Positions 51,224 through 55,177 of a DNA stretch of 64,000 bases are shown one piece after another. The DNA comes from Trichostrongylus colubriformis (lineage: Eukaryota; Nematoda; Chromadorea; Rhabditida; Trichostrongylidae), in assembly GCA_963978905.1 (NCBI GenBank), contig OZ022257.1:42170203-42234202 (forward strand), written 5' to 3'. Below the pieces are notes generated by a model. It did not search any database, was not told the DNA's origin, and saw only the letters and a program-made list of their open reading frames with translations. Position 1 is the stretch's first letter, and every line of letters begins with the position of its first letter. The translations under genes were made by a program, and so were the position numbers.

Positions 51224-54200
51224 TTGATCATCGCTTGTTCGAACGCGTGTCATCGTCGCATCGTATATACCTCGCTTAGTTCCGATCGGACGCTAACTCA
51301 TTACCACTCATTTCAGAAAACTTGGCGAAACACCCCACGCGTTCATGCGATCATGCAACGTTCAAAACCACCGTCTCCCGTGGATACAGGTACTCTTACT
51401 TGTTCAACCACAGAACCGGGTTCCGGTCCAAGCATAGACTTTCAACATAATACAGAGTTGGATTCAGATAAATTTACAGCGATTCCAGCCAACGCAGAAC
51501 CGGGTACCGGTCCCAACATAGATTTGTTCTCAGAAGAGGTTTCTATGGACACCTCGGTAGTAGACGCCTCTGAGCGATCTCCCGAGCCGAAGAAGCCTCG
51601 TCGCCCGTCCTCCCAGGAATCGGACTACTCAATCGAAAATATGAGTGTGGATGGTTCCTCCAGCGGAACTTCTTCACCAGCCCCGGCGACAAAGCCGGTG
51701 AGCCGCATGCCTGAGACTACGGAGGGTCTCACTTCCCGACCTTTGGACCTCTCAGAAGAAGCATTGCTGGCCTCCGACGACGAATCTAACGGACGCCAGG
51801 ACAAGTCTTCTTCGACCTCCCTACCGTCAGAGGCTAACCTCGCTCAGTCCATGGAGGATTTGAGTATCCAGCGCTCCGAAGCGGCGGCTCCTCCACCCTC
51901 ACCAGCGGCTACTCCAGTGCCGTTCGGACCCGTCGGATTTCCACCGTCCCCGGTACCGTCAAGCTCAAACAACCCCCAGGCCGCGCCAACTTCATCGGTG
52001 CGAGGGAGGGGTAACTCCCGTGAAGCTCGCGGAAGCGGACGCACACGTCGTCACGGCAGACGTGGCCGCGCCCCGGCTCCCCGCTTGTCGGTGCCATCCT
52101 CGGAGCCATCATATCCCGGAGGTCCTCCGCAACTCCCCAAGGAGACGCCGGCAAACTATACCCACTATTTGATCGACTTCCATCCGTGGGCCCGGTACGT
52201 CAAACCCCGCCCACACGACATGGTGAGGTTCGGAGATAATAAAGTCACCAACGAGCTGCCTCTCAAGGTGTACCCTCAACTTCCAGATGCCGGGTACATG
52301 AGCACGAGTTTCACTCGATCGCTGTTCCCGAAATTCGTAGTTCGGGCGGACCCATACACGGACCCGATTCCGTTCATCGAACTACAGCATCTGGAAGACT
52401 CGATCAACTTCCGCTGGGTTACTCAATCGATGATTTACGACATCCAGAACAACCGTTACGAGGACAGGGACGTTGCAGGAATCCCCGAAAATACGGACGA
52501 TCTTCGACAACACACAATCGATCCGACTACGCGAGACAGGCACCGTCCCGTGCTTTATCAGGTAGTTTCCACGGGATGGGGCACAGGAGTCGTGCTCGAA
52601 GCCAAGGATTTCTTCATTGTGGGTCCGGATCGCCGCGACCTACACTGCATCATCCTGGATCAGTACGCCATCAACCATTTGACAGGTTTGCGAGGTTTTA
52701 ATAAGGGGCGTATGTCCGTCAAGGACTACGTCTGGGTTTATGATGTTAAACCGACATTACAGGCTTTGAACAATTACGCCAGGGTTCTCACGGAATCACG
52801 CGTCCCACGGACTACTGTTCTGGACAGCAACTCTGCGTTCTTTTGGCGCGTGGCCTGCTTCTCGCTGGTCACCCCAATTACGCTGCCCGATCCGGTCTAC
52901 GGGATCATTCTCTCGAAGAAGCTCACGCGCAGGGGCGCAGTTGCGTCGCTGAAGGCGGTGTTCGAAGGCACCCCCGATGCCGTCACGCTGACGCACTCCA
53001 TTTGCGAGTTCGCCTTGAACCGCGTGAGGGAAGACGAGATCGTCATGGCGGAAACGCGCGTCAATGTGTCTTGCGCAATGCGCTTTTCAGAGCCGCCAGT
53101 ATCCATATCCGCGCGCAAACAGCTTTGCAGCTTCGCCATGCAGTTTCTGCCGATGCATCCGGACGAAGGGATCGTGCCGCTCCGTGTATGGAAGCTGAAC
53201 TCTGTGGAGCGGGCCTGGTTGGTCGACAGGGCCGATCAATTCGTGAACTACGATCTGCAGCACGAAGACGCCAAGGTACGTATGTCCAAGGTGTTTAATA
53301 TGGCTTGTTCAGCTCTCGCCGCGCTCAACTCCGCAGATGACGATCGACGTTCGCATCGTGTCACCGCGACGATGTCCCGCAACCATCACTACCCAGCAAG
53401 GCTCACGTTTATCCTCAACGAGATGCCCCTGGAAGCCGGCTGGACCGTTCAGCGCCCGGTGGCATTGCGTGTTCAAGGGTCGAACACCCTTGCTCGTGCA
53501 AAGGTGGTAAACGTCGAGGTTCTGACCGAACAGCGAGCGTTGCGGATCACCATCGAGGCCTTTTCGTGGTCTCACAGGACGGTCCTCGAGGAGATGTGCA
53601 AGCACGGACGTAACACCCCTGTGGTGACGTTCGCGGAAATCGAAGTCCGCCTCGGTAAGCAATCCAGCCAAGCGAACCCCACCTACGAGGCCATTTCGCG
53701 CACGCACATCTACGCCGACTTGAGTGCGTCCTCACTGGCAGGTAAGATTGTTGATGCGGTGTACGGACGCACTCAGTTCGGCCCACCACAAGAGGACCGC
53801 GCAGAAGCCCAGGTGGCGGTGGCCTCTTCATTCCAGATGCGAGGCAACACCGTCAACATGACGAATGACCAGATCGAGGCGATTCGTCTCGCAATCGGCA
53901 ATCATCCAGTGGCCGCCATCCAAGCCGCGTTCGGTACAGGTAAGACAGTGGTAGGTGCAATTATAGCAGCTCTTATTGCATCACGACCGTCGTCGGCCGT
54001 GCTCGTGACCGCAACGACCAACGCGGCGGTCGCCCAGTTCGCAGAGACCTTGCTGTCATTAGATGACTTCCAATCTCTACAGGTAGTACGGTATCTCTCC
54101 GATACGGCGGCCAATGAAAATTTGTACCCCACGAGGGTGGACTTAAATAATGTCTTGAAGTGTTTAGGAGAGAACTACGCGGCTCGGCTCACCGAAGAAG

Positions 54201-55177
54201 AAAAGGAGTTCTGCTTAGCATTCAAAACTCAGCGGGAACTCCTCGAGGAATATCTTTTAGAACCTGAAAGATTCTTTCAGATGTCCGAAGAGGAGCAACA
54301 CGAGTACGAGATAGCGGAGAAGGCCGTGTCACGATCGGTGAAAAAGATGGTTCGCCTCATGTTCAGGGTACATCGTCCGGCGATCATCTGCCTCACGACG
54401 GCATCGTTGCTCAACACAATGGACTCCGATGGCGGCATATTCTCTCCGTACAAGAGTATGTTTGGCACAGTGATCAGTGACGAGGCGTCACAGATCCCGG
54501 AACCCGCATTAGCGGCAGTGGCCACCCGGTTTCCCGAATCGCGCCAGCTGTTCATCGGAGACGTCCATCAACTGGAGCCTCACGTTCGCTGCTTGCGGAA
54601 TGCAAATCCAGCTCGATACGGGGCTCGCGGTGTCATGTCGGTTTTGGTGGAAGCCAACGCGGTGCCCGTAGCCCCGCTGGTCACTACTTTCAGAGCTCAT
54701 CCGTCACTGAACGCGCTGCCTAATATCGTCGCGTACGATGGCGCCCTCATCAGTGGAGCGGATCCCGCGTCGCGCCAGCTGCTTCTGTCCGCTATGCACT
54801 TTCCCAACCCCGCCGTGCCGTTTATGTTTATCGACGTAGACGGCACCTCGGTGAAAGCTGCTAGTCGGTCTCACTTCAATATCAGCGAGGGGCGCGCTTG
54901 CATCCAATTGATAAAGCTTCTTCTTTCCAGGAACCTCAGCTCAGCTCAGCTCTGTGTCATCTCGTTTTACAGGGAGCAATCGCTGCGGCTCAAGGACGAG
55001 TTGGAACAGCTGGAAGTGGAGCTTACGACCGTTGACGCGGTCCAAGGGAGAGAAAAAGAGTTAGTTATACTCTTAACAACCCGTACCGACTTTTCTCCCA
55101 CTTCAGCTGACTTCCTCGACGACTACAAACGGATGAACGTCGCAATGTCTCGATGCCGCCATGGCCAGTCGTCCTAG
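51224..55177 (+). CDS. SF1 (UPF1-like) RNA/DNA helicase (ORF3)
   Basis: The open frame starts at 51224, but the first in-frame ATG is at 51353, 36 bases after a good acceptor TTTCAG (51311-51316), so I favour a spliced message starting there. Order: a Ser/Pro-rich acidic N-terminus, a basic RGRG/RTRRHGRRGR patch (~52005-52075), a ~590-residue region I do not recognise, then the helicase core. Motif I is AAFGTGKTVVGA (K in GKT near 53942). Motif II is DEASQIPEP (54479). Motif III is GDVHQLEP, motif IV TTFRAHPSLN, motif V VDAVQGREKELVIL and motif VI RMNVAMSRCRHG. The DEAS box and motif order match UPF1/SMG2-type SF1 helicases. It occupies the position of a retroviral env gene and is untypical for LTR elements. 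The frame breaks just after motif VI. Confidence 0.9.
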   Translation: MIIACSNACHRRIVYTSLSSDRTLTHYHSFQKTWRNTPRVHAIMQRSKPPSPVDTGTLTCSTTEPGSGPSIDFQHNTELDSDKFTAIPANAEPGTGPNIDLFSEEVSMDTSVVDASERSPEPKKPRRPSSQESDYSIENMSVDGSSSGTSSPAPATKPVSRMPETTEGLTSRPLDLSEEALLASDDESNGRQDKSSSTSLPSEANLAQSMEDLSIQRSEAAAPPPSPAATPVPFGPVGFPPSPVPSSSNNPQAAPTSSVRGRGNSREARGSGRTRRHGRRGRAPAPRLSVPSSEPSYPGGPPQLPKETPANYTHYLIDFHPWARYVKPRPHDMVRFGDNKVTNELPLKVYPQLPDAGYMSTSFTRSLFPKFVVRADPYTDPIPFIELQHLEDSINFRWVTQSMIYDIQNNRYEDRDVAGIPENTDDLRQHTIDPTTRDRHRPVLYQVVSTGWGTGVVLEAKDFFIVGPDRRDLHCIILDQYAINHLTGLRGFNKGRMSVKDYVWVYDVKPTLQALNNYARVLTESRVPRTTVLDSNSAFFWRVACFSLVTPITLPDPVYGIILSKKLTRRGAVASLKAVFEGTPDAVTLTHSICEFALNRVREDEIVMAETRVNVSCAMRFSEPPVSISARKQLCSFAMQFLPMHPDEGIVPLRVWKLNSVERAWLVDRADQFVNYDLQHEDAKVRMSKVFNMACSALAALNSADDDRRSHRVTATMSRNHHYPARLTFILNEMPLEAGWTVQRPVALRVQGSNTLARAKVVNVEVLTEQRALRITIEAFSWSHRTVLEEMCKHGRNTPVVTFAEIEVRLGKQSSQANPTYEAISRTHIYADLSASSLAGKIVDAVYGRTQFGPPQEDRAEAQVAVASSFQMRGNTVNMTNDQIEAIRLAIGNHPVAAIQAAFGTGKTVVGAIIAALIASRPSSAVLVTATTNAAVAQFAETLLSLDDFQSLQVVRYLSDTAANENLYPTRVDLNNVLKCLGENYAARLTEEEKEFCLAFKTQRELLEEYLLEPERFFQMSEEEQHEYEIAEKAVSRSVKKMVRLMFRVHRPAIICLTTASLLNTMDSDGGIFSPYKSMFGTVISDEASQIPEPALAAVATRFPESRQLFIGDVHQLEPHVRCLRNANPARYGARGVMSVLVEANAVPVAPLVTTFRAHPSLNALPNIVAYDGALISGADPASRQLLLSAMHFPNPAVPFMFIDVDGTSVKAASRSHFNISEGRACIQLIKLLLSRNLSSAQLCVISFYREQSLRLKDELEQLEVELTTVDAVQGREKELVILLTTRTDFSPTSADFLDDYKRMNVAMSRCRHGQSS

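What the first reader, a model, noticed from the sequence alone, without database searches (positions are those of the whole stretch)
51224..55177. LTR retroelement carrying its own SF1 UPF1-like helicase in the env position
Seen: ORF3 lies inside the LTRs, on the same strand, after integrase, with all main SF1 motifs (GTGKT, DEAS, GDVHQLEP, VDAVQGRE, RMNVAMSR). Known: gypsy-type elements rely on RT, RNase H and integrase and do not normally encode a helicase; UPF1-like helicases act in RNA decay and small-RNA silencing. Inference: a captured host-type helicase could help reverse transcription, RNA packaging or evasion of RNA surveillance. I know of no described element with this layout. The basic RG-rich segment before the core could bind nucleic acid.
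Basis: partly seen in the sequence, partly recalled or inferred. Interest (0 to 1): 0.92.

Follow-up and report, generated by a model that had tools for sequence, protein, structure and literature searches.

The report
Nematode retroelement with its own helicase
A family of virus-like jumping elements in roundworm genomes carries, as a regular and well-kept part, its own copy of an RNA-unwinding enzyme of the kind that cells use to police messenger RNA, which suggests that the element handles or protects its RNA with its own tool.

Summary
A 14 kb Ty3/gypsy-type element (41752-55756) with two identical 398-bp LTRs and a 4-bp target duplication carries gag, protease, RT-RNase H, integrase and, as its last ORF, a UPF1-like SF1 helicase. 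It is no chance insertion: in the same genome 32 of 40 near-full integrase matches of this family (the window's included) have the helicase downstream, against 0 of 14 more distant integrases. Three other insertions with identical LTRs show the same layout. Helicase and integrase distances correlate at r = 0.98, catalytic motifs are kept, and median dN/dS is 0.17 in 11 pairs. Gene models of other strongylids, and more distant ones of Caenorhabditis japonica, join RT or integrase with helicase. A splice-acceptor-like site precedes ORF3 in 14 of 15 copies. The RG-rich tract is lineage-specific. Viral-type SF1 helicases were known in insect retrotransposons; ten open-access searches showed no report of this UPF1-like type. 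The role (RNA handling or evasion of silencing) is inferred.

The parts
41748..41751 (.). target site duplication ACTG, left copy
41752..42149 (+). 5' LTR, 398 bp, TGTAAGC...GCTTACT
   Evidence: 0 of 398 differences to the 3' LTR
42150..42164 (+). primer binding site directly after the 5' LTR (GGTAGCAGCGAGTGG); GGTAGCAGCGAGT also follows the 5' LTR in three other insertions; resemblance to initiator tRNA-Met is recalled, not tested
42818..42823 (+). GTAAGT in the leader, possible splice donor; a GTAAGT also lies in the leader of L015, none of this pattern in the leaders of L027 and L028
43854..48086 (+). ORF1: gag with CCHC knuckle, internal envelope-like glycoprotein, aspartic protease
44976..45026 (+). 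CCHC zinc knuckle (nucleocapsid)
   Evidence: PF00098 1.7e-7
45294..47190 (+). envelope-like glycoprotein: hydrophobic N-terminal segment and hydrophobic segment near the C end (by eye), conserved cysteines; Monjiviricetes_fusion match at 46176-46616
   Evidence: PF24664 1.2e-5 here, below its cut-off; 1.3e-8 to 5.3e-6 in four other copies, three above cut-off; alignment A2
47229..47522 (+). aspartic protease domain
   Evidence: PF13975 1.2e-4, below its cut-off
48175..51024 (+). ORF2: reverse transcriptase, RNase H, integrase
   Evidence: PF00078 1.9e-23, PF17917 2e-26, PF17921 6.4e-19
51311..51316 (+). splice-acceptor-like TTTCAG 36 nt before the first ATG of ORF3
   Evidence: same kind of site within 125 nt upstream in 14 of 15 copies, 472 of 6000 control windows
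51353..53860 (+). ORF3 N-terminal part: low-complexity start, RG-rich tract (about 52000-52100), then a conserved region without Pfam match
53861..54586 (+). SF1 helicase core, first half (motifs I, II: GTGKT, DEASQ)
   Evidence: PF13086 8.2e-13; motif table
54635..55162 (+). SF1 helicase core, second half (motifs V, VI: QGRE, RMNVAMSR)
   Evidence: PF13087 3.5e-34
51224..55177 (+).
55347..55358 (+). polypurine tract AAAGGGGGGAGG before the 3' LTR
55359..55756 (+). 3' LTR, 398 bp
55757..55760 (.). target site duplication ACTG, right copy

Best explanation
This is one recent copy of an old family of Ty3/gypsy-type (Metaviridae-like) elements of nematodes. At its 3' end the family carries its own UPF1-like superfamily 1 helicase as a standard gene, besides an internal fusion-glycoprotein-like region. 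Shown by sequence: the helicase lies inside the LTRs, is linked to the integrase in many insertions and in gene models of several species, has evolved together with pol, keeps its ATPase motifs in the main clade, bears the mark of purifying selection, and is preceded by a recurrent splice-acceptor-like site. Inferred: the protein is made from a spliced (or SL trans-spliced) subgenomic mRNA and acts as an ATP-driven translocase on the element's own unspliced RNA or RNP. It would stabilise, export or package the genomic RNA and clear structure or proteins ahead of reverse transcription, much as HIV-1 uses host UPF1 for export and as Cer1 uses its CERV protein.
For: Linkage: 32 of 40 integrase matches with at least 60% identity and at least 335 of 424 residues have the helicase downstream on the same strand, mostly 2.4-3.1 kb away (range 0.4-4.0 kb); 0 of 14 with 28-38% identity do. 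In 17 of 20 loci of 10 kb around the best-ranked helicase matches, INT, ORF3 N-part and helicase are colinear. Complete insertions: the window, L015, L027 and L028 have identical LTRs over 398, 347, 257 and 262 nt, 4-bp TSDs and the same 13-nt PBS start. Co-evolution: Mantel HEL-INT r = 0.981 (n = 11), HEL-RT r = 0.978 (n = 9). Selection: 40 of 43 full-length core matches are free of stops (hand count); median dN/dS 0.17 in 11 pairs, INT 0.26 in 6 pairs; L015/L016 show 119 synonymous and 16 non-synonymous changes, L027/L028 16 and 0. Motifs I, II, III and V are kept in 16 of 16 main-clade copies that were chosen for an open core, motif VI too apart from one residue in L026. Family: the profile scores UPF1 highest among solved structures (4.2e-53). 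Other species: gene models join RT or INT and helicase in Oesophagostomum and Ancylostoma and in C. japonica. Expression: acceptor-like site in 14 of 15 copies. Precedents: UPF1 promotes HIV-1 genomic RNA export (PMC4693258, abstract), CERV exports Cer1 RNA (PMC10309623, passages).
Against: No expression, splicing or activity data; the named role is analogy only. A leader donor of the pattern GTAAGT/GTGAGT is seen in the window and L015 but not in L027 and L028. 8 of 40 family integrases showed no helicase match; of the 2 of these whose downstream DNA I read, both keep an ORF3 N-terminal remnant but no helicase core; 6 were not read. Copies used for dN/dS and motifs were chosen for open frames, and the pairs are not independent; L018/L019 differ by 2 non-synonymous and 0 synonymous changes. 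In the divergent lineage L029 has Walker A changed from K to E, and a second copy (L038) shows ORF3 N-parts but no detectable core in the 1.8 kb read. The RG tract is not conserved. Gene models from other species are predictions that could be stitched, those of C. japonica above all. No structure could be predicted.
Confidence: 0.6

Rival explanations
1. The helicase is mainly a counter-defence factor. It interferes with nonsense-mediated decay (the pol stop leaves a very long 3' region on the genomic RNA) or with small-RNA silencing, by displacing host factors from the element's RNA or by unwinding dsRNA.
For: UPF1-like core; more than 4 kb of the element follows the pol stop; helicase proteins diverge faster than RT (mean distance 0.408 against 0.185 in the same nine copies), as in an arms race; weak silencing suppression in plants is reported for viral SF1 helicases of insect retrotransposons (PMC6338049, passages).
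Against: No element of the NMD or RNAi machinery was tested; the ATPase motifs are kept, so a mere decoy is unlikely; pairwise dN/dS is below 0.3 in all 11 usable pairs; no UPF1 zinc (CH) domain match was found (that this domain binds UPF2 is recalled).
Confidence: 0.25
2. The helicase acts at the DNA stage, on the cDNA or at integration (strand displacement, flap removal), as SF1 relatives such as DNA2 or ZGRF1 do in cells.
For: DNA2 and ZGRF1 are among the scored relatives.
Against: UPF1/NAM7 score clearly higher than DNA2 (184 against 110 bits); the 14 more distant integrases of the same genome have no such helicase match behind them.
Confidence: 0.1
3. A host helicase gene was captured by chance and rides along without function.
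For: Gene capture by LTR elements is known (recalled); the window copy is broken at its end and L029 has lost the Walker A lysine.
Against: Purifying selection, kept motifs and linkage across subfamilies and species.
Confidence: 0.03
4. The helicase persists because it benefits the worm (antiviral defence or another host use).
For: Two solo helicase genes, 32 kb apart, keep 1090-codon open frames without an RT or INT match in the DNA read and differ with dN/dS 0.285 and no indel in 959 codons.
Against: In the many full elements the helicase goes with identical-LTR insertions; the solo pair has lost the Walker B glutamate.
Confidence: 0.05

Closest known systems
Insect retrotransposons with viral SF1 helicases (TRAS/R1 and Jockey LINEs; fusions with LTR-element proteins in Diptera and Hymenoptera), PMC5563155 and PMC6338049 (passages read)
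   Same: A retrotransposon carries a superfamily 1 helicase with complete motifs; the authors proposed help in cDNA synthesis or silencing suppression.
   Different: Those helicases are of plus-RNA-virus (virga-like) origin and sit mostly in non-LTR elements; here it is the cellular UPF1-like type (AAA_11/AAA_12), a separate last ORF of a Ty3-type element, in nematodes.
Cer1 of C. elegans with its accessory protein CERV (PMC10309623, passages read)
   Same: Nematode LTR element with an extra spliced gene; the authors note TTTCAG acceptors; CERV exports genomic RNA.
   Different: The passages report no homology of CERV outside nematodes, and the word helicase does not occur in the paper's text; CERV exons 1-3 share the gag frame.
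Bdelloid rotifer LTR elements with captured enzymatic ORF3 (DEDDy exonuclease, GDSL esterase), PMC5408684 (passages read)
   Same: An enzyme is carried as an extra ORF3 in LTR elements.
   Different: Other enzymes, other hosts; helicase occurs once in the text, in a reference title.
Anakin: BEL/Pao elements of mosquitoes with chuvirus glycoprotein (PMC7642597, passages read)
   Same: LTR element with a chuvirus-type (Monjiviricetes) fusion glycoprotein.
   Different: BEL/Pao, not Ty3; here the glycoprotein match lies inside the gag-protease ORF. The exact place of env in Anakin and any helicase there were not looked up.
Cellular UPF1 / NAM7
   Same: Closest solved helicase core by profile.
   Different: No UPF1 zinc-binding (CH) domain match in 19 members scanned, some of them incomplete models; joined to another N-terminal region.

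Membership tests
Ty3/gypsy LTR elements (Metaviridae) | LTRs, PBS, PPT and short target duplication | tested here: met
Ty3/gypsy LTR elements (Metaviridae) | pol order PR-RT-RH-INT | tested here: met
Ty3/gypsy LTR elements (Metaviridae) | RT nearest to Ty3/gypsy RTs in a tree | tested here: inconclusive
   Its RT groups with other nematode RTs and then with arthropod ones, but no BEL or Copia references were included
UPF1-like SF1 helicases | motifs I-VI with AAA_11 and AAA_12 | tested here: met
UPF1-like SF1 helicases | closest to UPF1/NAM7 among solved SF1 helicases | tested here: met
   183.9 bits, against 111.6 for the best entry that is not UPF1/NAM7
UPF1 orthologue | N-terminal zinc-binding CH domain | tested here: not met
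   no such Pfam match in the full ORF3 or in any of the 19 members of A1; some members are incomplete gene models
UPF1-like SF1 helicases | 1B/1C insertions in the fold | not testable with these tools
UPF1-like SF1 helicases | nucleic-acid-dependent ATPase and 5'-3' translocation | not testable with these tools
   needs protein
Retrotransposon-borne viral SF1 helicases (Lazareva/Morozov type) | core best matches the viral helicase family | tested here: not met
   Viral_helicase1 0.024 against AAA_12 3.5e-34 in the window; among A1 members best 2e-6 (10 of 19 match) against 1.8e-42 (17 of 19)
Env-bearing gypsy elements (errantivirus-like) | env as an ORF downstream of pol (recalled definition) | tested here: not met
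   the glycoprotein match lies in ORF1, upstream of RT and INT
Class III / Monjiviricetes fusion glycoproteins | Pfam PF24664 above cut-off | tested here: inconclusive
   3 of 4 other copies above the 27-bit cut-off; the window copy is below at 23.9; no PDB match of the profile

The most novel reading that the evidence does not exclude
A lineage of enveloped, retrovirus-like elements of nematodes has carried, since at least the common ancestor of strongylids and Caenorhabditis, its own version of the RNA-surveillance helicase UPF1. It uses the enzyme actively to govern the fate of its genomic RNA, so that replication and evasion of decay or small-RNA silencing depend on an enzyme that other retroelements borrow from the host. 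One solo pair may have been taken back by the host.
Probability: 0.35. Interest if true: 0.9.

Novelty: new variant of a known kind. Interest (0 to 1): 0.78.

Why it matters
Retroviruses recruit host helicases such as UPF1; a lineage that brings its own makes the open question of what a helicase does for a retroelement directly testable. It also adds a cellular, UPF1-like type to the few known retroelement helicases, shows an envelope-like region placed inside the gag-protease ORF, and gives a marker (integrase followed by AAA_12) for finding such elements in nematode genomes, where the models seen here are named only as AAA_12, integrase-core, RT or hypothetical proteins and the like.

Tried and rejected
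Rejected: a chance insertion of a host gene; a viral-type helicase; env as an alternatively spliced intron between nucleocapsid and protease (a donor-like site near the CCHC knuckle in the window, none at that place in the four other copies where the knuckle was found, and no shared acceptor); the RG tract as a conserved feature. A PDB search with the env profile gave nothing up to E = 1. Paper searches (open-access PMC only) showed no report of this helicase in LTR elements; this does not prove that none exists. One further paper on a new LTR superfamily (PMC12440569: abstract, outline, passages) does not contain the word helicase. Not done: structure prediction; a second helicase search of the genome with the divergent query; a count of solo LTRs; naming the species (the nearest RTs found are of Haemonchus contortus, 90%, and Teladorsagia circumcincta, 88%; that these are strongylids is recalled).
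Full report
What is there. The element runs from 41752 to 55756. Its LTRs (398 bp, TGTAAGC...GCTTACT) differ at 0 of 398 positions, and the insertion is flanked by ACTG on both sides. ORF1 (43854-48086) holds gag with a CCHC knuckle, a glycoprotein-like region and a protease; ORF2 (48175-51024) holds RT, RNase H and integrase; ORF3 (51224-55177, first ATG 51353) holds the helicase. ORF3 matches AAA_11 and AAA_12, and its best solved relative is UPF1. The frame ends directly after motif VI, whereas relatives continue for 35-40 residues, so this copy is slightly broken at its 3' end. 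ORF1 and ORF2 are in different frames as well. Copies with longer open frames exist.

Is the helicase part of the element? A search of the window's own genome (331 Mb, unnamed) with the helicase core gave 95 matches, the window's included; 43 cover the core from residue 24 or earlier to 464 or later, and 40 of these contain no stop (hand count). A search with the integrase gave 104 matches. I compared the positions of the 57 that cover at least 335 of 424 residues with all 95 helicase matches. Of 40 with at least 60% identity (the window's included), 32 have the helicase downstream on the same strand; of 3 with 44-46%, 1 has; of 14 with 28-38%, none has. The 47 shorter integrase matches were not counted, and both searches scored only the best candidates (91 of 520 and 99 of 630), so a missing helicase match is not proof of absence. 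Of the 8 family copies without a match I read DNA behind 2: both retain a part of the ORF3 N-region (38% over 81 and 42% over 117 residues) but no helicase core.

The 20 loci of 10 kb fetched were those of the 20 best helicase matches after the window's own. In 17 of them INT, ORF3 N-part and helicase are colinear; L024 is rearranged, L025 lacks INT, and L026 shows only ORF3. For the three loci whose 5' ends I fetched (L015, L027, L028) the LTRs are identical over 347, 257 and 262 nt, the flanks carry TACC, ACGC and AAAC duplications, and the first 13 nt of the PBS are the same. These are full insertions, all with the helicase; L015 is of another subfamily than L027/L028.

Co-evolution and selection. 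In copies where both domains are in one open frame, protein distances of helicase and integrase correlate at r = 0.981 (n = 11, permutation p 0.0001), and of helicase and RT at r = 0.978 (n = 9, p 0.0003). Trees of RT (49 sequences) and helicase (42) show the same main groups (FastTree; the RT tree was midpoint-rooted because the plant outgroups were dropped, with P0050 and P0088; 9 of 33 helicase proteins were dropped by the coverage filter). Of 120 helicase pairs among 16 copies chosen for an open core, 11 have dS between 0.02 and 1.5; their median dN/dS is 0.17. Integrase gives 0.26 over 6 pairs, RT 0.04 over 3; the closest pair, L018/L019, differs by 2 non-synonymous and no synonymous changes. 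Choosing open copies favours low values, but the counts in single pairs are strong (L015/L016: 119 synonymous, 16 non-synonymous). Walker A, DEASQ, motif III and QGRE are kept in all 16 of these copies, and the motif VI arginine too, with one changed residue in that motif in L026; the divergent L029 and the solo L030 depart from them.

Other species. Of 33 proteins found with ORF3 residues 560-1317 (only the 7994 candidates sharing most words were scored), the first 28 all carry names of Haemonchus, Oesophagostomum, Ancylostoma, Cylicocyclus, Nippostrongylus, Trichostrongylus or Heligmosomoides, strongylids as I recall; the other 5 are two bird ZGRF1, an IGHMBP2-like, an actinobacterial and an unnamed protein. 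P0002, P0016 and P0017 (Oesophagostomum, Ancylostoma) contain integrase and/or RT or RNase H in the same gene model. The RT search (best 120 of 6597 listed) brought up a C. japonica model with RT and AAA_12 (P0088), and a search with its helicase part returned, besides itself, two more C. japonica models: P0154 (integrase-like piece, by eye, plus helicase) and P0155 (gag-PR-RT plus helicase). The C. japonica helicase is only 27% identical to the window's over 204 positions. L029, in the window's own genome, is similarly distant (helicase 28%, RT 53-67%) and groups with the Caenorhabditis RTs, weakly. This fits one old acquisition followed by fast divergence; two acquisitions are not excluded. 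Gene models can be stitched, and I could not read the C. japonica DNA.

The envelope. A stretch of ORF1 between nucleocapsid and protease matches the Monjiviricetes fusion glycoprotein family: 1.2e-5 in the window (below cut-off) and 2.9e-7, 5.3e-6, 1.6e-7, 1.3e-8 in four other copies, three of them above cut-off. It has conserved cysteines. With 74 of the 81 env matches (7 short ones left out), 33 of 40 family integrases and 3 of 3 of the 44-46% group have it 1-7 kb upstream, 0 of 14 others do. A Meloidogyne RT model carries it too (9.5e-6, below cut-off), with no helicase in that model, so the internal envelope may be older than the helicase. The helicase therefore does not replace env.

Expression. 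Within 125 nt before the first ATG of ORF3, a TT[TCG]CAG[AG] site occurs in 14 of 15 copies, against 472 of 6000 random windows from the same loci. The 15 are those of 21 (20 loci and the window) with a clear ORF3 start; they are related, and the pattern was widened to TTG. The distance differs between subfamilies (12 to 107 nt). A matching donor in the leader was seen in 2 of 4 copies. I infer a spliced or trans-spliced mRNA, as for retroviral env and CERV.

How it may work. The helicase core is UPF1-like by profile (184 bits, next family 112) but shows no UPF1 zinc domain (0 of 19) and has its own N-terminal region without Pfam match. HIV-1 recruits host UPF1 for export of its genomic RNA (PMC4693258, abstract read). 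An element that carries a related enzyme could use it in the same steps, or against decay and silencing. I give the RNA-handling role the larger share because the ATPase motifs are kept; the specific step is open.

Novelty. Retroelement SF1 helicases of viral type are known from insects (PMC5563155, PMC6338049, passages). The UPF1-like type as a conserved ORF3 of an env-bearing Ty3 lineage in nematodes appeared in none of ten paper searches, which cover open-access PMC only. I file it as a new variant of a known kind: an LTR element with an added enzyme.

Noticed in passing
L030 (G000:C3:41904090-41914089) and L035 (G000:C3:41935846-41942845): Two solo helicase genes 32 kb apart, 91.8% identical over 3.8 kb, each with a 1090-codon open frame (959 from the first ATG) and no RT or integrase match in the DNA read; dN/dS 0.285, no indel in 959 codons, Walker B DE changed to DN in both: a candidate for domestication with loss of ATPase activity.
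   Followed up: partly
ORF1/ORF2 junction, window 48049-48086, and L011, L015, L016, L018-L020, L022, L023: Protease and RT lie in frames that differ by +1 in these nine copies; in seven of them (L015, L016, L018-L020, L022, L023) the zero frame ends in TTT TAG, as at a programmed +1 shift. L012, L025, L027 and L028 are continuous there.
   Followed up: partly
window 45294-47190: Envelope-like glycoprotein region inside the gag-protease ORF, an unusual place for env; also in a Meloidogyne RT gene model (P0079, below cut-off).
   Followed up: partly
L018-L020: About 1.65 kb between the integrase stop and the ORF3 frame instead of 0.1-0.5 kb in the other full copies compared; content not identified.
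   Followed up: no
window 55897-56465 and 57213-57453: Two inverted-repeat pairs (62 and 66 nt arms, 95% and 92% complementary) just downstream of the element, possibly small DNA transposons.
   Followed up: no
window 51353-55174: ORF3 has a higher third-position GC (0.63) than gag and env (0.49), RT and INT (0.55, 0.53) and PR (0.58) of the same copy.
   Followed up: no
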